A DNA stretch of 64,000 bases from assembly GCA_036245805.1 (NCBI GenBank), contig BTRK01000002.1, positions 8,552,689 to 8,616,688 of the forward strand, read 5' to 3'. A program made the translations under genes and the position numbers. This document shows, piece after piece, positions 4,349 through 62,966 of the stretch; within the stretch, counting starts at the first letter, position 1; every line of letters begins with the position of its first letter. Below the pieces are notes generated by a model that worked only from the letters and a program-made list of their open reading frames with translations, was not told the DNA's origin and did no database searches. The stretch comes from Pristionchus mayeri. Lineage: Eukaryota > Nematoda > Chromadorea > Rhabditida > Neodiplogasteridae.

Positions 4349-6016
4349 TTATTGAGAGCCAGACGAAATCGAGCAGCGTTCACTGATATTATGCACTGAT
4401 TCCCTCAGTTTACGCATGAAAAACTGTCGAACTGGTCCAGGTAATAGAAGAGTGTATCTAAAATGATTAGAGTATTATATTCACAAGAAATTGAAAGATA
4501 AAAGCATCATGACTTGCATGGATTAGGTCGGATGATCACCGTCGGATGAGAACCAAATAATGATTTCCAAAAAGTGCCCTTCTGTTGGATGTTCACAGTA
4601 TCTTCCTACGCTATCAACAAGTCTACTGCAAAGATATTGCAGAAGAGTACAAACGTTGGTAACATAGGTGTCCACGCCGCCGGCGACAGGGGGTGCTGCG
4701 CACAGACGCACGGTGCGTCTATGCGCAGCACCCCCCCCCCCCCTCGCCGCCATTCGTGGACACCTATGGTTGGTAATTATTCGCGAGGGTATCACACGAC
4801 GGCAATCATCAAGCCTGCCGCCCACTAACATGGCTGGTCCCAACGAGAACAGATCGGAGGTGTAGTACATGATCTCGTAGATTAGGCGGGGATCATTGGT
4901 AATCGATTTGCCGGTTGTATTGTATACTGCGATGAAACACTGAAATTTTCACTTGGACGTGAACTCAATAATGCTGTATTTTTTTCCACAAAAAAATACG
5001 GACCGCAATGATCACATTGAGAACCTGTGTTAGGAAAATGAATAGACTGATGATGAAGAAATGTCTTTCCTGAAAGTCTATATAAGCTTTCAACACGTAT
5101 GAAACATTCGCTAACAATGGACGAAGATCGTGTATGTTGTATGGTTCGCATTACTTTGAGAGACATCCCCTTAAATATGATTTCACACTTTTTTAATTGT
5201 ATTGCTTAATTGCTTTTGTACATTCAGAATCGAACAGACTATGAAGATAAGGAGCCCGAATCCGAATTGGACATTTGACGCCAGATAATTCTTCTGAAAA
5301 CCAATGCTTTTGGAGCATAAGTGTGAAAAATACCTGCTCAAGCACTTCGTATTTTTCGGTCAACATATCGAGACGGAGTTTCAAATTCATCGGTAGCCTT
5401 CAATTTCATTAATTATCGAAATAATAACGCACACCGCAATAACCTCAGTGATAAATGAACGGCAATCGCAAGCAAATGAGTTGTAGCATAAATGTAAATG
5501 TAGGATTTATTCCACCACTGAATTGATTAGTAGCGCAAGAAACGAAAGGAAATGTACCACCGTATTTTTCATCATTGATAATATAACAGCGAATCGGTCG
5601 AAAGTGAGCAGCAGAAGGTCAATGTTTTGAACAAAGTAAAGATGTGAAACGAGAAAACTGTGAGCATTTCTGAAAAGCTATTCGTAAATTCCGAAATATC
5701 ATATGTTTTGCCACCACTTACATCAGCAAAGGTATCTTGGAAAGCCATTCGTAGTAGAACATGAAAAACGATTCATGTCTCAGCTTCAGGAAGAGCCAAG
5801 CGTTAAGCCAAGTTATAATGTTCTGAAGACATTCAACCAATAGACGAGATGCAAAAGTACCGAAATCGACATGATTGAGTAGATCACTACGAAACTCCTG
5901 CTGAGCAATCTGCGTACTCCATACATTGCGTAGAAAACGATGCAATATGACAGAATTCCAGGAATTCCATAGGATGCTTGGACGACGTTTCGGTGCATGT
6001 CGAAGTGAACTAACAT
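4349..6016 (-). CDS. Srg-type serpentine chemoreceptor, 9 exons, intact
   Basis: Nematode seven-transmembrane receptor of the Srg (serpentine receptor class gamma) type, presumably chemosensory and in the plasma membrane. Minus-strand exons: 6016-5861, 5822-5722, 5669-5561, 5517-5444, 5397-5334, 5293-5189, 5069-5004, 4939-4830 and 4457-4349. All phases agree, giving 894 nt and 297 residues with no internal stop, the usual Srg length. Start ATG at 6016 precedes MLVHFDMHRNVVQASYGIPG, the typical short N-terminus and TM1 opening. Further segments: NIITWLNAWLFLKLRHE, LLLLTFDRFAVIL, SNVQFGFGLLIFIVCSILNV, FIISLFIFLTQVLNVIIACF, and a TM7 region EIMYYTSDLFSLGPA then LLLPGPVRQFF, equivalent to the family's SD..T.SPP....R motif. 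Introns are 38-52 bp except the last (4458-4829), which holds a hairpin repeat. Several donors were chosen by phase and by comparison with the paralogue at 50 kb. Class is known-family inference; ligand unknown. Confidence 0.85.
4663..4768. repeat. hairpin repeat inside last srg intron
   Basis: Near-perfect inverted repeat: CATAGGTGTCCACG on the left and its complement on the right. Inside are GGGTGCTGCGCA and its complement, with a run of about 14 C. Opposing ORFs across it are artefacts of the symmetry. Confidence 0.75.
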
Positions 6017-6589
6017 GGATTGATCGAGTTTCAACCTTTTAAGGAAGTGAAATGAATTGCATGCGCTAATTTCACCATTGATAACGAAGTCTAGTCTTCG
6101 CGGACTGTGCTCAAACGCCGCTAATGAGGAATAATTTTTGATTTTGTGGAAATATGAAAACTCAATTCTGTGATCTCAATTTGATTGTTCATTGAACTGC
6201 GAGGAATAAAAATAATATGTAAATAATGTATTTCACGCTTCCCATACCCTCTCTCTCATCCAATTGTCTTCCGAGTGATTTTCGTTTTTTTTTTCAATTC
6301 TAGCCAAGTGAGTGCATTTATACGTTCATGTGAGCCCAATAATAAAATGTTACATCAACGAATTTTATTCATACACGCTCTTTCTCCGATCAACGATAAT
6401 TGTAAAGAAAATGAAAACTAATAAGTTTATGGGAAATCTGTAAATCTTTGATATCTTCGAACCGGTGACTTCCCTGCAAAATGTAATGTTAATAATATCC
6501 CAATAAGTGAATTTGCCATGATTCGGAAGATTATGTGATCGATGAAAATTGTCTAAACGACAATAGTTGAACAAATTACAAATATACCT

Positions 6590-7660
6590 TTACTGAAGGA
6601 ATTTTCGGTATTCGGCGCGAACAGTAGTGTCAGTTGGCGTTAACATGACGGAAGAGTTGGGCCTTTCTGATAGGTTATTATAAAAAATTATTTTATTGCA
6701 ACATATCACGCCTCTCATGACAGAATCGAGCTGAGTCAGGGAATGGAGAGCAACTCGTGAAATGAGTTCTAGCCGGTTTTGGGCATCCTCAGGCATGCCT
6801 GGCCACCTCCCAAACTAAAAACTATTGTGCAGGCTTCATTTTGGAGCTTCGTTCACCGGGTCCCAATTCGGCATCACTCACTTCAAGAGCCGATTTCTCG
6901 AAAACGGTGATAGATTGAGCAAAATTGTCCTCTTAGTGACCCCGACTCATTTTTTAAGCTCTATCGATCTATCAAAACCAATTTCTGGGAATCATTTTTA
7001 ACAGCGCTACATTAGAACTCATTTCACGAGTTTCCTCCATGTCCATTCTAGCTCGGTTCTTTCGTGAGAGGCGTGAAATATACTTGTTAGATATCCAAAA
7101 CGTGTATAGAGGAAAAAAATATCGCATTTCTGTAAACATCGATGACAAATTAAGTTACCCCATCGTTTTACTGTTGGTATATCGGCATATGAAAAAGGAA
7201 TGAAGACTGTAGAGGCTGCAACATAGTCCTGAATGAAGTTTTTGCGTTATGATGAGGCGAAAAAGGCAAGGCAGGTTCGCCAATTCAGTGTTAAGTATCC
7301 TGAGGATGCTAGTGTCCCCAGCGTGAGGCTTTCCGCCCGTGTTTTGAGTAAGTGGTTATGGTGGGAAAGGGTGTGGGTATTTCTGACAGTCTAATGTTTG
7401 ATCCTAATCTGATAATATAAGAAAACTTTTGGGGAGCATAACAAAATGTGAATATTTATTCTACATGATATAATAATAATGATAGAGTTATTTTAATGAG
7501 ATACAATTTGCATACCTTCCCATTCTCCAAGTCATCAATATGCTTGACTTCCTTTCCGTCCGTCGTATACAATTTTTTCGCGCCACACTACAATTGTTTT
7601 GATGATTTGGTTTCGGTACTCTTCACAGCCATTTTTTGATTCAATTTCATTTTTAAAGAT
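6590..7660 (-). pseudogene. DCX-family gene fragment, unit B
   Basis: Exon 7587-7516 (24 codons, CGAKKLYTTDGKEVKHIDDL then ENGK) lies between a gtag acceptor and a gtatgc donor. An upstream coding piece (about 7660-7620, NEIESKNGCE) is joined by a 38-bp intron. Downstream, about 6666-6590 encodes RPNSSVMLTPTDTTVRAEYR, matching PNSSVKLTPIDTTVRTEYR next to the unit-E DCX exon. In unit E the two exons are about 70 bp apart, here about 850 bp. Sequence shows a doublecortin-like half-domain joined to a family-specific exon. DCX domains bind microtubules, but too little is present to claim function. Confidence 0.5.
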
Positions 7661-19454: not shown

Positions 19455-20540
19455 TAGTTGTATATAACAGACTATCAGAGAAAATCGACATGTTTCTTCA
19501 GCGACTTGGCACTGGCCAAAAATTCGAATTGCTAATGACGTCGCCAATAGGTAGCGCTCGTCGGGGGAAAGCGGCGGCGAACATCGCCAGAATTTCGATC
19601 CGCATCCGCACGGACGCGGGCGCGGATTTAAAAAAAAATACTACAGTAGTCTCGAAATTTTTTAATCGACTCTGACCGCTTTCGCGGTAGGGGCGCTGCA
19701 CTCCTTGACAAATTCTAAGACTTTTTTAGTTCGGTAAATATTTCGATCAGATTCCATCTGACGCCGGAAATCAATAAAATCGTTTTTACTTCGGACATGA
19801 ATACTTTTCCCCAAAAAAATTTCAAGAACTCACATACATATTATTTCCGTTTTAGCTTTGGTTTGAGAAGATAAATCGTTCAGTAGAAAGGCGCGATTTA
19901 AAATTGTCAATAAGTAAGTCAAAATTAATAAAGAATGAATTTGGTGTAATTTTTGGGTTACGGTATGTGCACAGGTTGGACGACTTTTCCAAATCGGTGT
20001 TACATTGGCTAAAAATTGATTTTATAATATTTTACACCAATAGGGAAAAGTCGTCCACCCTGTACACTCATATACCGTAACCCAAAAATTACACCATAAT
20101 TCATAAATTTATTTTGTGTTCCTTTTTGACAATTTTAAATCGCGCCTTTCTACTGAACGATATATCGTCTGAAACCAAAGCTAAGACGGAAATGATATTT
20201 ACGTAAGTTAAAAAAAATTCAGGGAAAAGCATGCATGTTCGAAGCAAAAACGATTTTATCGATTTTCAGCGTCAGATTCTGATCGAAAAATTCACCGAGT
20301 GCAAAAGTTTCAGAATTTGTCAGAGTGCAGCGCCCCTATCAGAGTCGATTTAAAAATTTCGAGGCTACCGTAGTAAATTTTTCAAAATCCGCGCCCGCGC
20401 GGATGCGAATCGAAATTCTGGCGATGCTCGTCGCTTTCCCTCGACGAGCGTTACCCATTGGTGACGTCATTAGTAATTCGAATTTTTGGCCAGTGCCAAG
20501 TTTATTTCGATTCTGTCAGATAGTGTGTTATATGTATTAC
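19455..20540. repeat. foldback element family A, copy 1
   Basis: Ends with TATAACA-type termini followed by CTATC.GAGAAAATC and CTTCAGCGACTTGGCAC. Arms are about 480 bp, separated by a short loop near 20000. Relatives: 56895-57995 (complete) and 38565-38742 (one end only). Confidence 0.85.
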
Positions 20541-38069: not shown

Positions 38070-38564
38070 GTGCCGTCAATGAAATCGCGATCAAACAAGG
38101 TATAATCATTCGGATGTTTTATTTTTTTTTTTGATTCGAACGTATGCGTACATTGGCCAAGCCATCCCCTAATATATGTCATCGAGCTAGCTTAAGATCT
38201 TTATCGAAAAGGATTTTATGGGAATTCAAAAACCATGATCAAAATCTAACATTACTTTCTCACCAACCTAATACTACCCGTTCAACCTTCTTCTGTGCTT
38301 GGAAAAATTGAAAGTTTAGCATCAACTATACAACATTAGAACATAGGTACGTTGAGCAAATTTGTAATATTAATCTGATCTCGTCCTCTCGGTGTCTCTC
38401 CCTTCTCTCTATTTCAGCGTATTTTACCTTTGTATGTGCGTTCTCCGACGCCCTGTCATGGCAACACGAGGAAAAGAGACGGAAATAGAGACTATGTTCC
38501 AAAACTAGAAATGCTGCGCGTATGCAGAAACCTCACACATTACTAGGCTATTCCATAGAAAGTA

Positions 38565-38742
38565 TATAGCAGAATATCTGAGAAAATCAACATATTTCTT
38601 CAGCGACTTGGCACAGGCCGAATTTTCAAATTCCTACTGACTTCACCAATAGGTCGGCATCGACGAGGGAAACATGCGAGCTTCGCTAGATTTTCGATCC
38701 GCATCCGCGCGGTCGCGGGCGCGGATTCTTAAAAATTGAAAA
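38565..38742. repeat. solo left end of foldback family A
   Basis: Matches the left ends at 19455 and 56895 (ATCTGAGAAAATCAACATAT, CTTCAGCGACTTGGCACAGG) up to the GC-rich gcggattc block. The right arm is absent. Confidence 0.8.
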
Positions 38743-43360: not shown

Positions 43361-43615
43361 TTTAAAGGAGGAGTAAATGTAAAAGCGCTCCCTGTTGGAA
43401 TATGTTTCACCTAGGGACGCACTCTCTTCAAGTCGCGTGCTATCTCGCCCCTTTCCCTGAGCTTTCCCTGATCTGGCTCCCAGCCAACTAGCTATAACTC
43501 TGTTCGGAGCGGAGATATCAATTTGGAAATTTCGGAGCATCTTATAGTTGTGGAGCTCTAGGCAGTGCATATGATAGCTTCAAAAATTGAATTTTGAGTT
43601 TACTCCTCCTTTAAA
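43361..43615. mobile_element. TTAAAGGAGGAG MITE, copy 1
   Basis: 255 bp with inverted termini TTTAAAGGAGGAGTAAA / TTTACTCCTCCTTTAAA. The ends read as TTAA (probable target duplication) plus AGGAGGAG. The inner sequence (cgcgtgctatctcg, tagctataactctgttcgg) matches the copy at 55495-55746 in opposite orientation. Confidence 0.9.
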
Positions 43616-51110: not shown

Positions 51111-51435
51111 ATACATTCATTTTAAAGGGATACGGTGGCCTAAAATATTACATTTTTATTTTTCATGGCCTTTGTTTATTGAAATATACAATTAAAACTA
51201 AATTATTACGAAAAAAATAAAAATAAAAATAAAAATATGCCATGGGTGAAATTAGGCTTCGAAAATTGCATTAATTTGAACGGGAGCGTGTTCCATGGTA
51301 TACTGTGGGAGAGGTTTCGACAAGTTGGCACTTTGCCAAGTGAGGCCGATGGCTGTGGCCGCTTTGACGTTTCGCTGTCGTTTTATCCTTTCTTGCTTGT
51401 CAATTTTTATTATGATGAGTTGTGTAACCATCTAG

Positions 51436-51735
51436 ACATCTTTCCCGCAATGAATTGAAGTAGTAGTGGGTCTTTTAAGTTTGCTATGCGATGCCAAACC
51501 TCTAATTGCACTGACGAGAACTTCTCTAGTTGCGGTGACTTCACTTTCGCGTAACTTGCGTATAATCTGCATTTTAAATACTGATAACTCGTCCCGCGAT
51601 TCTGCCACTGCTTATTCAGGGTGAATCAAACGTGCCCTCCGCGTAGAATTGTTCGGTGTTAGCATGTTACACGTTTTGCTGCCTGTTGTTTCGATGTATT
51701 GCACTGAGCTCTTTTCCTCATTGTTGCTTTCCCTA
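51436..51735 (-). other. possible small coding region near the left end of the element
   Basis: Minus-strand frame ESNNEEKSSVQYIETTGSK ... KMQIIRKLRESEVTATREVL ... SKLKRPTTTSIHCGKDV with one internal TAA. The final 46 codons from ATG (about 51576) are open. Its polar composition looks protein-like, but I recognise no family and it may be a relic. Confidence 0.3.
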
Positions 51736-54700
51736 AATATATCGCAGTTTTGTGATGTTTATATTGTCATGATCGTCATTCGATCATTTGTCCCATTTCA
51801 GCGGAATACAATCGGTCGTCTGTGAAGTAATTGAGCCCACTCCTGCACGAGGAATTACAAAGTAAGTGGTTTTACTTGCTTATTTAATCCCAGAGTTGAA
51901 GAAAAAAAAATTTAATTACTTCAGCAATACGTAATCGCTGTCGACAAGGCTCTCAAGTCGTTCGAGAACACCATTGGGCCGACCTCATCTCTGCGCTGGG
52001 CAAGCTCGCCAAGGTTTGATCTAATTTCAGTAATATCGATTTTCTCTACCGATCGATCCTGCTAAACTTTCATTGGTTAGGGTATTGACTATCAGCCTGT
52101 TATGGCGCTGGAACACTCGCGATAATACATGATGTTGTGTTTGTCGATGTTCCGCGTCGGCCTTTGGAGCTAGCGCGATCAATAAACCTTGTTCCAGGTG
52201 TTCTCCCAACACGCCGGTGACATCCCTACGGCGGTGACGGTAGCCAAACGACTCTCGCAGTGCCTCCATCCCGCCCTGCCCATGGGTGAGCGATCGATTG
52301 CTAACGGGAGGCTTTATTCGTAGATATCGATTAGTTGAAATCTGTGGGGGGGGGTGCATTAGTTGTCGAAGAAGTAGTATGATTGAAAATAGTGTTGATC
52401 GGTGAACAATAATTCAAATACCGCTGTCAATATCTCAAGTTATATTCGAATGTATCGATTAATGCAAACAGCGACAAATGTTATCGATTGAATCTAGCGA
52501 ATCCATTACCGTACCCCTTCATCGCAGGAGTCCATCAGAAGGCACTGGCGACCTACAAGCAGATATTCGACATTCTCGGCCAGGAGGCACTCCCGAAGCA
52601 GTTGTATCTCTTCGCCGTCGGCCTCTTCCCCCTCATATACCACTGCACCACCAAGGTGAGATCAATATCTATAACGATACGGTAGTCGCGTTTATCGATT
52701 AGGCAGAGCAAGCGCATGATCAGGGATAAAATTCTTAATGTATAATATTTTTGTTGCACTGCCTGGTTGATTATCTCTAAAAAAATGTTACTGCATTCGT
52801 ATTTCTTGTGAGACACTAAACTCGCAGGCGTGTTCGCGAGCAAATTTTTGCTGAACAATCAACCCCAATCTCACAGGTACTCGGTTCTCCCTCCGCTCGA
52901 CTTCCCGCTCTGATCTACGTGAATACGAAATTCGACAAGTTAAAATCGATCGATGAACAGTTGTGGATTATCGGAGACAACATACATCACATGGTGAGGA
53001 GGGAGTACGGTAGAGGGAGAGTGAGATGGTGTATGAGTGTATTGTATGATTTGCCGGTGACGAATCTAGCTACCAAAACCACGAGTAATTAGTAACAATG
53101 CTAAAGTATTGTAGCTGAAGATTAGTTGAGACATGAATTTAACAAGTTTACAACGCTGCCAATTACCAACTCCTTCCCAGGTATCAGCCCTGTGCACAGC
53201 GGGTGAGGACATGGGCTCGCCGAGTTGCTGCGTCGTACGTTGTTCGTCATCCTGAGAAGGGATATGCCACTCAATCGGCGACTCTACACTTGGCTACTCA
53301 ATCCCTCCGTGGGCTAGCCTAATCGTTAATTAACTTTTGGGAGAAAATTCTGCAAAATGTGCTGTTAATGATATGAGTATCAGTGCTTCACGCACGTTTC
53401 AAATCGGTTGAAGGCGAATATTGATTGACACAGAGAAATTCCCAAAAACAATTCTAAAATGTTTTTTTCAGGAGTGGCGACGATGGTGAATTCTGTGCCC
53501 GTGGGCGACGATCGACTCGATACTTCCTTCTTCACTCATACAGTACTCTCGATGATTGTCGATGCCCTCAGGGGATTCCTCGAGGGAGGCACCGTGGAGG
53601 TACGGTAGCTTATATATATATATATATATATCGATTGATTTTCCATTTCTGCTCTTCATAATAAACAACGATGGATTCTAATCCGCTTTAGCTCGGAACT
53701 TTGTAAGCATATTATTATTCAGATTCCCATCTCTATGCCTTCTACCTTCTACACTCTGACTGCAGCGGCCAAAGACTCGGATGCACAACAGTTCGTGGAA
53801 GTGCGAACGTGCAGACTTTTGGCGTGCATGCAGGACAGACCGGAGGTGAGTGATGGGAGAAGGGTATTGCAGCATACTGTACGATCTGACAGTACTGCTG
53901 TAGCGTGGTCACTGTAGTTACCTGCATTTGCACTAAGCCCTCGGTCAATTATCATTACAGCCATTTTCCAAATGCTATTACCTCTGTTGGTGATAGTCAC
54001 CTTCATCTTTGTGAACCAGCAATCTACAGTATCCTCCCTCTGCTCAGGTCGGTCCTCCCGTTCTGATGCGAGTGATGCTGCTCAAGAAGTGCTCTCGATT
54101 GATGCCCGAGGGAAAGAAGAAAGAGAACGAGGATAGGGAGAGGTAAATTGGTAATATTGGAAGGAAATATGGCTGTTTTCTGGTGCAAGTGTATGACAAG
54201 AGCAATAGGGCGAACGTTTTCTAATCACAAGATCGCTTTGCTTTCAATGGCCCGAAATCGTATCACTCCCAGTGCCCTCCGGGTCGTCTCTCTCTGATGC
54301 TGCAGCTTCCCTCTGCAACTTGCAGCAGCAGCTATCTGCAGGAGAATGAGAACAAGGAGGAAGACGAGGAAAGGAGGGTAAGTCATTTATTGGTATTTGA
54401 GATACAAGTCCACGTCTTCTTGATAACTTCGCACGGCAATTGGTTTAGAAGCACATGAAACCTCAATATCCAGGGAGAGATGTGATAATTCTTTTCAGAT
54501 TCGCCGTCGTGAGGAAGTGGCGAAGATTCTGAATGCACTCATGCAAGCGATGGACGAAGATGGATCAGCTGCCTTCCTCTGGTCATATCTGGCTGACTAC
54601 TATGAATGGTGAGGATACGGTAGAATTGATTCTTTTAGCCAGTCGAGAAAGGAACTATTGTTTTGCATCGTAGATTCTGTGATTTGAATCCTTACTGCAA

Positions 54701-55494
54701 CCCGGATCTCACAGGTTGCTCACCTCTCTCAATGGTTCTTCGTCTGAGAGGAAGAAGAAAAGCTTGCTGTTGGAAGTTCCGTTGATGGGAGTGAACGAAG
54801 CAGAGGAGGAGATGATGGCATATGCAAATGTGAGTTTCCAGTTATCGATAATATCCTAACTCGTTAAATATTCTAAAAATATATTAATTCGAAAAAAAAA
54901 GTTTTTTTAAACACCGGGTTTCGTTGAAATTTTATGATTTGTTGCGCTTGGTTTTGATGTTTCCAAAAAAAATGGATGTTCCTTATCCGATGAAGGTTTC
55001 AGAACTCGCTTATTTTTAGTTCTAGCTCAGGCGTCTAATGAAGTATCCGATCATGAGGAATCAAACATACCCATAGGTGGGCACCATCGAAGCCAGCTGT
55101 GAAACACCCCTTTTCGGATTGGACACCCTGGTTTTTGGAAAATTTTGTCACAAAAACGATCATTTGCGATCACCCTTTTGACCCTAAACACCCCCGGTTT
55201 TCGATTTCCAGCTTCAACCCCGCCTACCTATGAACATACCAAAAAAATCCCTCTCGTTTTCAGGTGGTATCTTACTCACTCTCCCTCTCTCAATCTGGTT
55301 CTACTTCTTCTGGAAGAAGCAAACATCTACCGGAGCTTCAAGCGAATTTTGAGATGCGCCAATGCAATGAACATCATCGAGAAGAGGGACAAGGTAAGCG
55401 GTTATGGATTCTGAACTAGGGGGTTGGAGGTTTCATTAAGATCACACAAGCGCCGGTACTATTTGTCTTCGCTAAAGTCTCAGAAACATTTCCA

Positions 55495-55746
55495 TTAAAG
55501 GAGGAGCAAAGTCAAAATTCAATTTTTGAAGCTTTCATATGCACGGCCTAGATCTCCCCAACGATAAGAAGCTCCGAAATTTTCACATTGATATCTCCAT
55601 TCCGAACAGAGCTATGGGTAGTTGGCTGATAGCCAAATCAGGGAAAGCTCAGGCTACGAGCGAGAGAGCACGCGACTTGAAGAGAGTCCCCCTCTCATTG
55701 AAACATACTTCAACCGGGCGCGCGTTTGACTTTACTCCTCCTTTAA
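55495..55746. mobile_element. TTAAAGGAGGAG MITE, copy 2, in a pad-1 intron
   Basis: TTAAAGGAGGAGCAAA at the left and TTTACTCCTCCTTTAA at the right; about 252 bp, reverse orientation relative to 43361-43615. Its right end lies 7 bp before the acceptor of the exon at 55754 (tttccag), so the CTCCTCCTTTAA end contributes the pyrimidine tract. Confidence 0.9.
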
Positions 55747-56894
55747 TTTCCAGATGGTGTTGTCCACGGTGGAGATGGCCTCGGGTCTGCTGGCGGAGAT
55801 TTCGAGAGCCGGAGGATCACTCGAGGCGCAGCGTTCGTGTTTCATTTTTTCCCCCTGAATCAGGCGTTCTGATCTCTATCCATTCTATTTCATTTTTGTG
55901 TACAAATCAATCTATTACTATGAGCTTCTGCTTAGTTTCTTCGCGTGGTTTATGATTTGATGTTTGGTCTTTCCTATCTCCCTCCCTCTTCTAGAGTCCT
56001 TCGAGGGTTGCGCAGCAGCCACTCCCGAGTCGCCGAACAAGGCATTCCTGGCGAGTCTCGTCGATAAGCAATGTTTGTGCGGAGGGGTTCTTGCTGTTAT
56101 CCCGTCTGATCTGTGTTTCAAAGCCAGAACTGTCATTGTCTTTCTTATTTGCTGTTGGTGGGAGGTTTTGTTGAATACGGTAATGCGTGGAGTACTGTAG
56201 CTCAATTATCGACCGTTGCAGAGCAGGCAATGATGGAGGCTTGTCTGGAGGAGTGCCAGCGACTGATGACAACCATCTGCCGATACTACTGTGACCACAG
56301 GAGTACGGTATTTTTATATTAATTTTTTTAAAGTTTAATATCTTGCTGGTCAATCTGGTGTTGAAGCGTTGCCTTAAAATGAGAAGCTTCATTGTGAGCC
56401 GATGTGTCACACGACTTTCTGTGCTAAAAACCCAATCCCATTTCACATTGATTCAATAGTTGAAATTGTTGCCGGTCAATCTGATGTTGCAACTTTTCTG
56501 CAACGAAACAGTGTACCTTAAACCGATCTTCCTCTCCTTTTTTTTCTCTAAACTACCAATTTGTAGTCGTCTCCCGTTGGCCTCTTCTTCGTGCGATGAA
56601 CGCATTGCTGCTGCAGTTTGCCGACTTTGAAACAAGTAGTTTTTTGAAACAAGATTAGGAAAGTATAATTGCTTGGAGACTTTGCGAAGCGTGCGAAAGG
56701 ATCACAGTGAAGCACGAGTCAACCATGCGCGTGAATACTAACTCTCGTTTTTAAGATCAAAATAAATTAATCTTATTGAGTCTGCGGGTGCTCGTCTGGT
56801 TCTTCTCCTCCACTCGAGAAATGCCGCCGAACCGAGTAGCGTGGTGGAGAATATCATGATGAAGGCACTGACGACGGATGACTCGGTCAGAGAT

Positions 56895-57995
56895 TATAGA
56901 ACACACTATCTGAGAACATCAACATATTTCTTCAGCGGCTTGGCACAGGCCGAAATTTCGAATTCCTTTTGACTTTACCAATAGGTAGTACTCGACGAGA
57001 GAAACCGACGAGCGTCGAAGGAATGTCGGTCCGCGTCCGCGCGCGCGACGGCGCGGATCTTGAAACAAACTACCGTAATCCTCGAAAATTTATATATCGA
57101 CTCAGATCACTGCGGCGGTAGGGGGAATAGGTCGGCGAGCAAATTCTAAGACTTTTTTACTCCGAGGAGTTTTTCGATCAGATTTGATCTACGGCTGGAA
57201 ATCGATATTTTCACTTTCAATATTTTTTCCTGGAAAATTTTCCAAGAATCCGGAAAAATTTTATTAGCTCTATCGCTTCTAAATGTATTAATACATCTTC
57301 TGTAAAAATATGAATTTTTTTTGAACCCACGTATTTGTCGATTTTTTTCAAAATGTGAATTATGGTGTGAGAAATACTGTAACCGATTTTTTCCGAATTT
57401 ACATATTTATGCAAAATATGATAATTTAATCATCCCATTAATGCCGATATAGCCTATATGCATATAAAGTACATGAATTCATGCAATAATATGAGAATAT
57501 ACAAAGTTAGGAAAAAGCGGTTACAGTATTTCTCACACCATAATTCACATTTTGCAAAAAATCGACAAATACGTGGGTTCAAAAAAATTCATATTTTTAC
57601 AGAAGATGTATTAATACATTTAGAAGCGATAGAGCTAATAAAATTTTTCCGGATTCTTGGAAAATTTTCCAGGAAAAAATATTGAAAGTGAAAATATCGA
57701 TTTCCAGCCGTAGATCAAATCTGATCGAAAAACTCCTCGGAGTAAAAAAGTTTTAGAAATTGCTCGCCGACCTATTCCCCCTACCACCGCAGTGATCTGA
57801 GTCGATATATAAATTTTCGAGGATTACGGTAGTTTGTTTCAAGATCCGCGCCGTCGCGCGCGCGGACGCGGATCGACATTCTATCGACGCTCGTCGGTTT
57901 CTCTCGTCGATTACTACCTATTGGTGAAGTCTGAAGGGATTCGAATTTTCGGCCTGTGCCAAAAATATTTTGGTTTACTCAGAAATCGTGTTATA
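56895..57995. repeat. foldback element family A, copy 2, inside the pad-1 fragment
   Basis: TATAgaACAC...TATA ends; arms contain CTTCAGCGGCTTGGCACAGG and its counterpart, and the centre holds a strong pair (57230-57410 / 57520-57700). It directly follows the codons for TTDDSVRDY of the pad-1 exon, so it broke that exon or its donor. Confidence 0.85.
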
Positions 57996-58782
57996 GATCT
58001 ATTGTTATCGTATCGCTCTCTTTTTTATTGATAGTTACCAAAAAAAGATAGTATTGCCATTGATGATGCGAATCTCATTCAATCTTATGAACAACGTGTA
58101 ACCCGAACGCTACCAGTTGTTTCACTAAACATGCTGGAAGCTTTTGTGTTCTAATTGAAAGTCAATTTCCATCAGGTGCTCGCAACGGAGGCAGCGCGTA
58201 CATTCCATCGTATCTGGACGCTCACTCGCAGTGACGAAGAGGGAATGCTCGCGGAGAATGCGCAGCCTAAGCCATTCAATAGGTACGCAATAATTCCATC
58301 GTAGTATCTCCTTTTTTGGCAAGTGAACGACCTGTTTTGTCTTTGTAGTATGTAGCATTGCTTATTTTCCAAATAAAAATCATATTTTTCCAGAGTACTC
58401 ATGTTCCTGTTGGGCGTGCTGGCGGATGACTCGCTGTCGGCTGAGAAGGTGAGAGATTACGGTAATCATTAACTCTCAGGTTGTTCTCAGGTCTTAATAT
58501 TGCCATCTTCTTTTTGCGATATTCTGTAATAGATAATGTGATAATAGTGATAATGTGATAGAGATTCGCAATGTTTTGAATGTTTTTATCCATTAATGTG
58601 TTCCTAAAAAAACGTTCAGTCTAATTAAGGTCAACTACTCTACACCAATTCGGGCGACAATGCAGAGTGAACGAAGTAAGTGATGTAACAAGTGATAGTC
58701 TCCGGGAAAAAAAATTCAATTGAGCTCTTTCTAAAAATATTAACTGGCCTATGCATGATCCTCACCCTACCCTCTGTACCCT

Positions 58783-61700
58783 CTATGCTTCTCTCTTCAC
58801 TCTTCCTCTCTTGGGTGGTTCGTATGTCGTGTCACCATCGGATCCCTCATCTTCTTCATCCCCTCCATCCTCCTGCCCTCTCTTCGCCTTCCTCTTCCTT
58901 TCCTGCTTCTCACGAGGATCCTCTTCATCTTCTTCTTCCGAAGTCTCCAGTCCAACTGCCTCTCGTCCCTTCCCACTGGATGCTCCTCCCACCCTGCCGC
59001 GACCTCGCCCAAGTCCTCGTCCTCTTCCTCTTCCTCGTCCACTCCCCACAACTATCCCCACCTTCTCCTCTCCCTCACTCCAGTCTGATCCAGAGGAAGG
59101 CACCGACTCCTCTTCCACTCCTCCAAGTCCCTCCTCCACCGTTTCTTCTTCTCCTCGGGACTCGCCCATCTCCACTCCGTCCTCATGCTCTGCATCGTCC
59201 TCGGAGAGAGCAGTTGGATTGGCGTCGAAATCGATATCTTCTTCGTATCCCACTCCATACTCAATGGATACTTCGCTCTCCTCGCCCTCGACATCTCCGT
59301 CCGATTCTTCATCCTGCTCGATGATCGCTGCCATGTATCGATTCGAGTCCGGGATTCCGACCCTCTCCATGTATGCCTTCTCTCTCATTTTCCGGATGAC
59401 TCCCTCCACCTCACTCCACACCTGGTAAAATAATAATTTAGTTTTCTGATCATTATTGATTGATTTGATGATGTCCATTCCTACTAACTGTTCAATGCAC
59501 TAACTTCATCCCTCCACTCATGGGGCACTTCGTCCTTCTTCCTCTTCACACACTTTGCCTCTCTGCCCTTCGCATTTGTCTGGTAGGATGACTTCTCTGT
59601 TCGCACACCGACAACCTTCGCCATCGTAAGTGTGTTATGGTGCATCACAGCAAGTTTCACTTTCTCGTCGTATGCCACTTGCGAGCTAAATGGATGAATT
59701 GGTAACGGGAGATTCGAAGTTTCAATGAGGTTCTATATTGGTTGGATGTGTTTATTCACTAACCTTCAGGTCTTTGGTGCGTACAGATTGAGAACGCTGT
59801 TGAAGTTCTCGCAAGGCGAGGTATTCATTTTTGGAGCTGCTCGGAGGAAGCTCTTGGTTAAGGACGGCTTGAGAAGAGCATGCTTGAGAAGTGCGAATTC
59901 ATTTCTCTTCCTGTCAATCTTGTGACTCTTCGACTCTTCGGACAGATCATGATGGAGACATCCAGAGATTCCTTTCAGGAATGGAATCTGAACAGCATCT
60001 TTTTTTTCTACCTTGAATAAACGCATGTACCAATGTGTATACTAACTACCTTCTCGAAATGCGTGTCTGTCGCAGACGTGCGCGAGGGCGCTCTTCATGT
60101 ATTCCAGCCCAGTGTTTCTGTCGGCTGGGAATTTTTCATGCATTGCATAGCAGTGGTCCACGATCTTGCGCCGCCAGTATTCGAGGTTAGGACATTCTTT
60201 CCTCTTCGCTAACTGAATGCATTCAATGCACCGTTCGATATTAATTCTGCTTAGTATTTTGAGATATAATGTAAACCGAATACCTCTCGTAACACCTTGT
60301 TGAGTCCTTTTACCAGGTCCCAAAAGTCACAATGGTGGACAATTTGAGAAAATCGAGGATGATCTTCCATCATCTTCTTTATCTTTCCATCGTTGTCGGA
60401 TACGAGCGAAGTGATCTAAAGAATGAGTAATGGCTCCTCAGTAAATGACTACATTTAGATTGCCATATCATAACTCCGATCCGATCGGCGATAGCCATTT
60501 CTTGCATAGTTATCTCGAGTTCCAATAGAAACTGGTAGGGTAATGCGGTGGATAGTGTGGATATCTAACCGTGAACTGTTTTGCCTGCAGTTCCAGGAGT
60601 CCGATCCGCACTCCTTCCTTCTCCATGCGACCACTAATGCCTTCTGTAATAAATGAGTGTGCACATTACTCACACCAACTGACGCTACCGATCCCCCGCA
60701 TGTCTTTATGCATTTTCTTCACATTGAATATGATGTTGGTGTGGATGTCGATGAATAGTACAGTCCCATTGGGAGCAGTATGACCCATGTGCGAATACCT
60801 TCCATCGACTGCCACTCCGACTCCTGCCTGAAACGTTTACAAGTTGTGATACTGTGGAGAATGCCATACCGTACTAAAATTTAATCTCTCAAATTAGATT
60901 TATTTGCCAATAAGAAGAGAAGGATGTGTTGGCAAAACGATATGTCTAACTGATTTCAGGAGAGTATCTGGGGGATGACGGAAGCAGAGGAAGAAGGACT
61001 CTGCGGGAGTAAAATAGGTCGGTTCAAATTTGCATTGTTAACTGCTGCGAAGTGCCCCACAGAGTAAGCATGAGTCATGGTAAATTCGATAGGTAGGCCA
61101 TGATAGGCCAAGACTAAGTACCGTACCTAATCGATAGTACAGTAACCCCAGATACCATATATCTCTACCGTAACCCCGACTATCACGAACTAACTTTAAT
61201 TTTAAAAAACAGAAACCATACTGTAGAATCATACGTTGAAGGGAGGGACCTCAGATGCCCACCCGGCCACTCCTTTGTAATCTGTTCTTTCTACCTTGTC
61301 TCTCAAATATATTTGAAGTATACATAATGCCTCTATACATTTCAGTGTCGGGCGTCGCGGAATCTCCTTAAAAAATCAAGATCGAAGTTGGAGGAGTTCC
61401 AAAGGTGGGGGGACCAGGGGTTGTTGGGTAGATTTGGTATCCCCTTATTGGGACATTGAGGGTGGGCGGCGCAAGCTGCCTGGATGAGAAGAACAGGATG
61501 CTGGATCAGGTGAGACAAGAGAGATTGTCAACTTAATGTTTCCCTCAAAATAGCCTTCGATCACCGGTTGAGAAGACCACTTGACTATCCGTTCACACAC
61601 GTTGCAATACCATTCCAGGCAGAGAGCTGATCCTACGGTGTGCGACTTGAAGGAGTCGTTCTTTATCTCCTTCATGCCACACTCGTAGCAGCGAGCGAAG

Positions 61701-62507
61701 AGGGATAGGAGGCAGTCCATCTTGACCAGAACGTATTCGGTACGTAGTTGAGTGGTGGGTGGGTCACATAGGACACCAGTCTCTGACGTCACTTCGGAGT
61801 GCGTCGTTTGTTGAGATTGGACGTAGGACTAAATTCATGTGTCAATAGATGAAATATCATTTTATCGTGATTGTCCTAACGATTAGTGGTACTAGTACTT
61901 TTCAATTGTTATTTCGTTTATATATTCAAATTGAATAAAGCTAATATCAATTGGTAATTAGGTTCTGATCGTATCTCTTATTGATCTTTCTTTATTCAAT
62001 CGTTTTAAATTTCGAGATGCGTTGAATAAATATATTGTTGTACGTACTTGTTGAGACCTAGTGTGTTGTGGAGTAGGCATGTGGAATGTAGTGTATATAG
62101 GAAATAAAGAATTGTGCTCTTGATCTTGGTCCGCCCTCTGAAGACGAGGAGGGCCTTCTTTCTGTTCACGACGCTAAACACGCGGAATAAAGCAATCGAA
62201 AATACACTTACTGATAAAATGAAAAGACATTGGTAAGTACAACGCATCATTACAATCACATCAAATCAAGTAGACAATAACTCACATCTATTGGAGGGGG
62301 GTTCTCGCCTTTCTTCGAGCGCGGAAAGTGGTTGTGGCAGAGTCTTGCCCGCTTGCCCTGTGCTTGAACAGACGCGACCTTCTCCTCCAACGCTTGAAAC
62401 TCGCCCTCGATGAGATTGAGGCGGAGCAACCACTCCCTTCTCAGCTCGGGAGTGGAAGGAATCACACGAGTTTCGCTTGAACGGAGTGGGCATGCATACG
62501 TTGCCAT
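58783..62507 (-). CDS. Kolobok-like transposase, THAP-like N-terminus, multi-exon
   Basis: Minus exons: 62507-62286, 62173-62048, 61828 to about 61517, [gap], 60827-60689, 60643-60570, 60415-60284, 60203-60050, 60011-59764, 59685-59505, 59421-58783; about 740 residues. N-terminus YACPLRSSETRVIPSTPELR ... RLCHNHF resembles a THAP C2CH finger. Cys-rich block ARCYECGMKEIKN / WYCNVCERIVKWSSQP. Core: GVAVDGRYSHMGHTAPNGTV, GRMEKEGVRIGLLEL, ITSLVSDNDGKIKKMM, VHHCDFWDLVKGLNKVL, ENFNSVLNLYAPK, LAVMHHN, equivalent to the GDGR...TDRH..I...FD.WH..K...[LE..H]..Y.PK..LA.[L/M].HN series of this transposase family; catalytic residue assignment is inference. C-terminus is highly acidic with GRGRGRG repeats and KRGRVKREA (likely nuclear). 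Odd: about 60-70 residues expected before VDGR are not found (60840-61500), and an in-frame TGA lies at 59766-59768. It converges on the pad-1 fragment. Confidence 0.8.
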
Positions 62508-62966
62508 GAACTGATAGCAACTTGAAGCAATAAACACGGAAAGAGAACGAAAATGAAGACATGCAATGACATAAAGTATCTGGTTTATACGCCGTTAATA
62601 GCCGTAATATGCTTAATCCTGCGATTACCTATACAAATCAGAACACCGAAAAGGGAATACAACGTAAACTACTGAAAAAAAGCAAAACTATCTAGAGAAA
62701 TAGCCCAATTAAATCGAAAGACCTTCGCATGGCCTTACAAAAAATTAATTAGGCAAAAACACCGTATTTTTTTTAAATTCCCGCTCAAATACCGTAATTG
62801 TCCTATGTTTCCTAATTAACGCTCCCCAATAAATACCATTTCCCGGCTTTGTCCATTTTCACGTTTAAACAATTTTTAAAAATTATTTTGAAAATTGCAT
62901 TGATATGACAGGACGAAGCCTCGCAAATTTAGACAGACTTGTTTTTCGATTTCCGGATCCCTTTAA

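What the first reader, a model, noticed from the sequence alone, without database searches (positions are those of the whole stretch)
51122..62966. 11.84-kb TTAA-bounded transposon that carries a transposase and an intron-containing piece of pad-1/DOP1
Seen: exact TTAA at both ends, inverted AGGGATMCGG termini, and an insertion point inside an intron whose uninterrupted paralogue is present at 5670-5721. Known: Kolobok elements duplicate TTAA, begin AGG, and use THAP/DDE transposases. Inference: the element transduplicated genomic DNA (introns retained, so not via mRNA) of a conserved essential trafficking gene. A very large gene-capturing Kolobok-like element in a nematode would be unusual and possibly undescribed.
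Basis: partly seen in the sequence, partly recalled or inferred. Interest (0 to 1): 0.92.

Follow-up and report, generated by a model that had tools for sequence, protein, structure and literature searches.

The report
Transposon family carrying host trafficking genes
In the nematode Pristionchus mayeri, nearly all of about 65 detected copies of a jumping DNA element carry an intron-containing piece of the gene pad-1, and five carry the start of a second gene (delta-COP); the pieces were likely picked up by DNA-level copying and then multiplied by transposition, on a scale larger than the animal cases in the papers read here.

Summary
Window 51122-62966 is one element with TTAA at both ends and 14-bp inverted ends TTAAAGGGATMCGG; a paralogous stretch in the same window has no insertion. 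The genome is Pristionchus mayeri. About 65 clusters of copies were detected, 23 showing both ends. In 21 compared sequences, 37 of 40 termini lie at TTAA; three right ends do not. The minus strand carries a multi-exon transposase with DDE, DxxH and H-H-C-H motifs and a sub-threshold THAP domain, likely Kolobok-type; the window copy lacks one exon. The plus strand carries pad-1 exons for residues 22-903 (with gaps), in order, 93% identical in protein to host pad-1 on C5; where host DNA was compared, introns align too. One copy reaches residue 1183. Pad-1 exons are in 21 of 21 compared sequences and a pad-1 profile match in 59 of 65 clusters; five clusters carry delta-COP, residues 1-95 with introns in the four fetched. 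Subfamilies are 98-99.6% identical internally: recent bursts. Host-cargo divergence is more synonymous than a neutral cargo at equal rates would give, hinting at a donor pad-1 that stayed functional after the split. Smaller gene captures by nematode DNA transposons are known (Turmoil-1). New variant of a known kind.

The parts
51122..51135 (+). left terminus: target TTAA plus AGGGATACGG
62953..62966 (-). right terminus: inverted AGGGATCCGG plus target TTAA
51122..51357 (+). left end shared with the delta-COP-bearing copies (their junction is at 51357)
51922..58451 (+). captured pad-1/DOP1 genomic segment, sense strand, exons for residues 22-45, 54-124, 196-233, 277-418, 428-681 and 814-903 of P0007, in order, introns between them
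52195..52287 (+). pad-1 exon VFSQHA..PALPMG (2 codons lost relative to host)
52527..52656 (+). pad-1 exon GVHQKALATYKQIFDILGQEALPKQLYLFAVGLFPL, best Dopey_N hit
55495..55746 (.). nested 252-bp TTAA-bounded element beginning AGGAGGAG, absent at this site in L044, L046, L054
56901..57992 (.). nested 1.1-kb inverted-repeat insertion (arms 89% identical), absent at this site in L035, L044, L046, L054
58783..59499 (-). acidic/RGR-rich C-terminal ORF of the transposase; resembles by eye the tails of the relatives P0001-P0006
59502..60215 (-). transposase exons with H-H-C-H motif and presumed catalytic E (SPCENFNSVLNLYAPK)
60281..60415 (-). transposase exon with presumed second catalytic D (SDND) and DxxH (DFWH)
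60567..60827 (-). transposase exons with presumed first catalytic D (VAVDGRYS) and SGRMEKEGV motif
61517..61828 (-). transposase exon with CxxC pairs (CYECG..CNVC)
61524..61525 (.). site where this copy lacks about 327 bp that hold one transposase exon in L044, L046, L052, L054
62283..62507 (-). first transposase exon, THAP-like C2CH (in this copy the first cysteine pair is altered)
4900..6700 (.). uninterrupted paralogue of the insertion site (outside the element)

Best explanation
It is one copy of a multicopy, TTAA-associated, likely Kolobok-type DNA transposon family of Pristionchus mayeri that carries, besides a transposase gene, a large intron-bearing genomic segment of host pad-1, likely acquired by template switching during DNA repair or replication and then likely multiplied by transposition. 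Shown: shared termini, TTAA at 37 of 40 termini, different flanks, an uninterrupted paralogous site, a DDE-type transposase gene in the long copies, deletion derivatives that keep the cargo, in-order pad-1 exons with alignable introns over the part compared, and a second captured gene (delta-COP residues 1-95) in one derivative subfamily. Inferred: that transposase from long copies moves the deletion derivatives in trans; that insertion duplicates TTAA; that capture went by template switching (the delta-COP piece ends at a TA-repeat in a pad-1 intron, where microhomology could act). Predicted, untested: that small RNAs made against the element would also meet pad-1 transcripts, because cargo and host exons are still about 90% identical.
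For: Ends and copies. Uninterrupted paralogue. Copy comparison and deletion junctions (58252|61940; 51357|53621). Transposase. Pad-1 cargo: with exons in 21 of 21 sequences; host pad-1 is P0007 on C5. Cargo of the window copy shares the P. mayeri-derived residue at 24 of 28 informative sites, 2 ancestral-like, 2 other (the site filter uses P0007 and so leans towards it). Delta-COP. Recent bursts: 98-99.6% identity within subfamilies.
Against: Three of 40 termini, the right ends of L034, L037 and L042, are not at TTAA. PF20700, the only transposase profile above cut-off, is named Mutator-like, and no reference Kolobok sequence was available. The THAP match is under Pfam's cut-off (16.8 against 23.9 bits). 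The motifs come from exons joined by eye, and the joined protein itself did not reach PF20700. Structure prediction of a relative failed (pLDDT 36.5). Movement was not observed. The left boundary of the cargo (51358-51900) and host DNA beyond about residue 305 could not be compared.
Confidence: 0.85

Rival explanations
1. The pad-1 cargo is, or until recently was, a working element-borne gene kept by selection, rather than a passive pseudogene.
For: Host-cargo omega is 0.14-0.28, where a simulated neutral cargo at equal rates gives 0.37; 32 nonsynonymous differences observed against 48.5-74.8 expected. 16 of 16 splice dinucleotides kept in L029-L034.
Against: Within the family omega is 0.46-1.15; the 6-kb consensus has stop codons, a TGA at residue 153 in most of its copies, and the window copy has frameshifts and deletions; the delta-COP subfamily is frameshifted in its pad-1 part; splice sites are changed in six of the 16 copies examined.
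Confidence: 0.1
2. The cargo was taken from a diverged pad-1 (another population or Pristionchus species, or a lost paralogue) and came into this genome with the element, for instance by horizontal transfer or hybridisation.
For: The same excess of synonymous divergence: a cargo branch of 0.05 and host branch of 0.14 fits best of four settings tried; comparisons with L040, the most distant type, show the highest third-position divergence.
Against: A milder inequality (0.07 and 0.12) also just covers the data (95% range 31-57 against 32 observed), so a faster host lineage is enough. Cargo shares most P. mayeri-derived residues against P. entomophagus and P. fissidentatus, so a donor must be close. 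No second species was searched at DNA level.
Confidence: 0.25
3. The element is a Mutator-like or separate lineage that happens to use TTAA, not a Kolobok; the capture story is unchanged.
For: PF20700 is named Mutator-like transposase; THAP below cut-off; no Kolobok sequence compared.
Against: TTAA at 37 of 40 termini, AGGG termini and the motif set given for Kolobok.
Confidence: 0.12
4. Segmental duplication or assembly artefact, with the element only adjacent.
For: Some copies lie in mirrored or repeated stretches (L048; C4:1.94 Mb; C2:4.58 Mb; C6:50.70-50.73 Mb, where two right ends share the same non-TTAA neighbour, L014 and L015).
Against: 65 clusters on six chromosomes, 23 with both ends; 15 fetched copies with TTAA at both ends and different flanks; cargo inside the ends.
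Confidence: 0.02

Closest known systems
Kolobok superfamily DNA transposons (PMC9587614, PMC6004289; passages read)
   Same: TTAA target, 5'-RR termini, DDE with C/DxxH between second D and E, H2CH motif, THAP domain (sub-threshold here); full-length Xenopus members of 6.8-13.9 kb
   Different: Carries large pieces of host genes in nearly all detected copies, which the passages read do not mention; its relatives match a profile named Mutator-like
Turmoil-1 of C. elegans (PMC2572040; part 1 of 2 of the text read)
   Same: Nematode DNA transposon that transduplicated pieces of two host genes, one with an intron
   Different: Harbinger superfamily; pieces of 205 and 131 bp inside the inverted repeats; one full copy and eight fragments
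Animal Pack-TIRs and Ssk-FB4 (PMC8277862; abstract, sections 7 and 9, passages read)
   Same: Host DNA between the ends of a TIR transposon; multicopy cases explained by template switching followed by transposition
   Different: 370 Pack-TIRs in 100 genomes, only four called multicopy; the examples described have three or four copies, one with a 291-bp capture; FB4 is non-autonomous
Pack-MULE / Pack-TYPE elements of plants (start of the abstract of PMC8903248 in a search listing; otherwise recalled)
   Same: Multicopy capture of host coding DNA
   Different: Plants; described there as non-autonomous, whereas here long copies hold transposase and cargo together

Membership tests
Kolobok | TTAA target-site duplication | tested here: met
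   searched without requiring TTAA: 20 of 20 left-type and 17 of 20 right termini in 21 sequences are at TTAA; both ends at TTAA in 15 of 18 copies with both end types found, and in the mirrored L048. That one TTAA was duplicated is inferred; no empty allele with a single TTAA was seen
Kolobok | 5'-RR / YY-3' termini | tested here: met
   AGGGAT... / ...ATCCCT; criterion from PMC9587614
Kolobok | DDE transposase with C/DxxH between second D and E | tested here: met
   VDGRYS, SDND, DFWH, SPCENFNS aligned to P0001 and P0002 (P0004 lacks the first); motif only, catalytic role inferred
Kolobok | H2CH zinc finger after DxxH | tested here: inconclusive
   RHTHF...GCLHH, in relatives RHRHF...KCKH, recognised by eye without a reference alignment
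Kolobok | N-terminal THAP domain | tested here: inconclusive
   C-x2-C...C-x2-H pattern in the long copies; Pfam THAP E 0.012, below cut-off
Kolobok | groups with Kolobok transposases in a tree | not testable with these tools
   no reference Kolobok sequence at hand; relatives match PF20700
Mutator (MULE) | Mutator-like transposase profile | tested here: inconclusive
   PF20700 above cut-off in three of six relatives (P0001, P0002, P0004), not in the stitched protein; what else the profile covers was not examined
Mutator (MULE) | long (about 9-bp) target duplication (recalled) | tested here: not met
   flanks share TTAA only in the fetched copies printed
piggyBac | piggyBac-type DDE domain | tested here: not met
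   no piggyBac family among Pfam hits up to E 0.1 of the stitched protein or P0001-P0006
Pack-TIR / transduplication | host-derived sequence between transposon ends, parent locus elsewhere | tested here: met
   parents: pad-1 on C5, delta-COP on C3; neither place is among the 41 left-end places listed (capped)
Pack-TIR / transduplication | cargo spread by transposition | tested here: met
   copies with different TTAA flanks sharing the same internal junctions; the movement itself is inferred

The most novel reading that the evidence does not exclude
An animal DNA transposon has made pieces of membrane-trafficking genes a standing part of its body: it took about half of pad-1 with introns from a pad-1 lineage that was still under selection, later swapped part of it for the start of delta-COP, and multiplied both, so that any silencing RNA aimed at the element would also threaten two needed host genes and the element is shielded by this resemblance.
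Probability: 0.15. Interest if true: 0.92.

Novelty: new variant of a known kind. Interest (0 to 1): 0.72.

Why it matters
Gene capture by DNA transposons is well known in plants; the animal survey read here found few multicopy cases, with few copies. Here an animal family with transposase-bearing members carries kilobases of a conserved gene in nearly all detected copies and captured a second gene of membrane trafficking. It offers a many-copy system for asking how capture happens and whether captured host sequence changes the conflict between transposons and small-RNA silencing.

Tried and rejected
Pfam gave no delta-COP hit on joined short exons or on whole frames; a comparison with solved structures did. 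Solved structures held no relative of the pad-1 piece. AlphaFold2 of the relative P0001 with six sequences gave pLDDT 36.5 and was not searched further. Pfam did not name the flanking gene, apart from a sub-threshold DCX match. A long chimeric delta-COP/pad-1 protein was considered: the splice phases fit by eye, but the pad-1 part of L035 changes frame and L036 shows the same changed frame, so it was dropped. The search for the pad-1 C-terminal family PF24598 did not complete. A first script for protein identities failed half-way and was redone. My earlier count of TTAA at ends used motifs that contained TTAA and was circular; one search repeats it without TTAA and found three ends that are not at TTAA.
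Full report
WHERE IT LIES. The window is G000:C2:8552689-8616688 of a 290.8-Mb assembly.

ENDS AND SITE. The two termini are TTAAAGGGATACGG and its near-perfect inverse, each once in the window; beyond these 14 bp the two ends are no more alike than random pairs of window stretches (local score 32, maximum of 200 random pairs 33). Joining the flanks gives about 1 kb that aligns to 4900-6700 of the window, which has no insertion but no TTAA at that point either. Searches with the left and right ends list 41 and 40 places, the tool scoring only 40 candidates.

THE FAMILY. I fetched 19 further copies in full or nearly so and one mirrored copy, L048; with the window this makes 21 sequences. Searching for the end motifs without TTAA finds a left end in 19 of 21 plus a second left end in L048, all 20 at TTAA, and a right end in 20 of 21, of which 17 are at TTAA. 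The three exceptions are L034 (CAGC), L037 (TTTT, an eroded end) and L042 (AGAA). So 15 of the 18 copies with both end types have TTAA at both, each with different flanks, and L048 has it at its two left ends. Among the 28 end loci L001-L028, which overlap these copies, 24 are at TTAA. Merging the places by distance and strand gives 65 clusters: 23 with both ends, 59 with a Dopey_N match, 5 with delta-COP, and one (L039) with neither that nevertheless holds pad-1 exons by tblastn. For one search I used about one row per place of the 140 rows; host rows were left out. Six of the 59 have a Dopey_N match alone, with no end or transposase listed.

SUBFAMILIES. Long copies (10.7-11.8 kb: L044/45, L046/47, L052/53, L054/55, window) hold transposase and pad-1. 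A roughly 6-kb group (L029-L034, L042, L043) lacks window 58253-61939, most of the transposase, but keeps the THAP-like exon and pad-1. A 4.3-6.7-kb group (L035-L038) has delta-COP in place of window 51358-53620 and keeps later pad-1 exons. L039/L041 and L040 are further types. Identity within groups is about 98-99.6%; the window copy is 92.7-94.2% identical to the six copies listed for it: bursts followed by little divergence, with the window copy on another branch.

TRANSPOSASE. It lies on the minus strand in many exons. Joined by eye from L054 it matches six annotated proteins, five of P. mayeri and one of P. fissidentatus, at 41-51% identity. Five of the six reach E below 1e-4 and three pass the cut-off for PF20700, Mutator-like transposase; the joined protein itself does not match it at E 0.1. 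Aligned motifs: VDGRYS, SGRMEKEGV, SDND, DFWH, RHTHF...CLHH and SPCENFNS. These agree with what two Kolobok papers list (passages read). The name of the profile speaks for Mutator, the target site and motifs for Kolobok; without reference sequences I call it likely Kolobok-type. The window copy lacks one exon (about 327 bp at 61524/61525) and so is unlikely to make the whole protein; L044 lacks the C-terminal part; the exons compared are all found in L046, L052 and L054. Whether any copy is active is unknown.

PAD-1 CARGO. Host pad-1 is on C5 (P0007). Its first nine annotated exons on L068 follow the protein with GT..AG borders; the end of the ninth was not resolved. Over that stretch cargo and host align in order through exons and introns; beyond it only the protein could be used. 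By tblastn the window copy holds residues 22-45, 54-124, 196-233, 277-418, 428-681 and 814-903; L040 holds 22-235 and, with small gaps, 902-1183; pad-1 exons were found in 21 of 21 sequences. The longest Pristionchus pad-1 protein listed has 2519 residues, so up to about half the gene was taken. Protein identity of the cargo to P0007 is 90-93% over the 21 sequences; for the window copy it is 93%, against 84% to P. entomophagus and 81% to P. fissidentatus.

HOW THE CARGO EVOLVES. Host against single copies (poorly aligned stretches filtered out): codon position 1 differs by 2-7%, position 2 by 3-9%, position 3 by 16-21%, introns by 18-22% in 15 of 16 copies; L039 differs by 18, 16, 21 and 22%. 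Between subfamilies the three positions differ about equally, except in comparisons with L040, where the third is highest; omega is 0.46-1.15, against 0.14-0.28 between host and cargo. Simulations of a neutral cargo with a host changing only synonymously (300 each) give, for cargo/host rates 0.10/0.10, 61 nonsynonymous differences (95% 48.5-74.8); 0.08/0.10, 50 (37-64); 0.07/0.12, 43 (31-57); 0.05/0.14, 30 (21-42.5); observed 32 for the 6-kb consensus. Equal rates do not fit; a moderately faster host branch just does. So either the host gene changed faster, or the cargo descends from a pad-1 that stayed constrained for a while after its split from the present host gene: a diverged donor, or an element-borne copy that worked for a time. 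Splice dinucleotides are unchanged wherever aligned in ten of 16 copies (16 of 16 in L029-L034), but 1 or 2 have changed in L046, L052, L054, L040, L041 and L039. Copies are related, so these are not independent tests.

SECOND CAPTURE. The 1.77-kb segment of L035-L038 encodes delta-COP: E 2.1e-20 to chain 5a1u_H for two joined exons, residues 1-95 of P. mayeri delta-COP (P0010) in four exons in all four copies. A 30-residue exon occurs six times in the genome: once at the host locus on C3 and five times in element clusters, identical in protein in all; the fifth cluster (C4:17.44 Mb) was not fetched in full. The segment ends in a TA-repeat within a pad-1 intron, which would suit template switching by microhomology; this step is inferred. 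Host delta-COP DNA could not be fetched, so its introns were not compared.

WHAT IS KNOWN. Turmoil-1 (Harbinger) of C. elegans carries 205- and 131-bp pieces of two genes (PMC2572040, part 1 of 2 read). A survey of 100 animal genomes found 370 Pack-TIRs, four called multicopy, and proposes template switching followed by transposition for these (PMC8277862, abstract, sections 7 and 9, passages). 'Kolobok' does not occur in that paper's main text, nor in the P. pacificus repeat paper PMC9297572 (passages only). Searches for Kolobok with gene capture, Pristionchus with Kolobok, Pack-TIR with nematode, transduplication with nematode, and P. mayeri with transposons listed no paper whose title or abstract start describes this family. 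The library holds open-licence papers only. That pad-1 and delta-COP serve membrane trafficking and are needed by the animal is recalled, not tested here.

VERDICT. A real, multicopy, likely Kolobok-type family with family-wide host-gene cargo: a new variant of transduplication, notable for size, copy number and repeated capture. I lowered the main confidence from 0.88 to 0.85 after and for the Mutator-named profile.

Noticed in passing
window 55495-55746 and 43362-43614: Two copies (84.6% identical) of a 252-bp element, the first TTAA-bounded and starting AGGAGGAG; it is nested in the transposon and absent at that site in L044, L046 and L054: perhaps another Kolobok-type MITE.
   Followed up: partly
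window 56901-57992 (relatives at 19461-19776, 20257-20533, 38557-38734): A 1.1-kb inverted-repeat insertion nested in the window copy, absent at that site in L035, L044, L046 and L054.
   Followed up: partly
L048 (C5:44414700-44423000); likewise C4:1939375/1947632 and C2:4580766/4585324: Mirrored copies: in L048 two left ends face each other, with mirrored flanks too; inverted duplication or assembly effect. The other two pairs are judged from places and scores only.
   Followed up: partly
L034, L037, L042 (and L014, L015): Right ends that are not at TTAA; L014 and L015 on C6:50.71 and 50.73 Mb share the same AGAA neighbour, as after a local duplication.
   Followed up: no
G000:C2:38360058-38378246: The transposase segment occurs three times at a spacing of 4096 bp within one cluster.
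   Followed up: no
L030, L031, L032, L034, L043: Deletion derivatives without catalytic exons keep a 166-aa open frame with the THAP-like exon (one THAP cysteine changed in L030 and L032), which might act as a repressor of transposition.
   Followed up: no
L046/L047: Another element end of the CCGGATCCCTTTAA type abuts the left end directly, sharing one TTAA.
   Followed up: no
window about 61119-61175 and long copies: Tandem 117-bp units in what is probably a transposase intron, varying in number between copies (about ten in L046).
   Followed up: no
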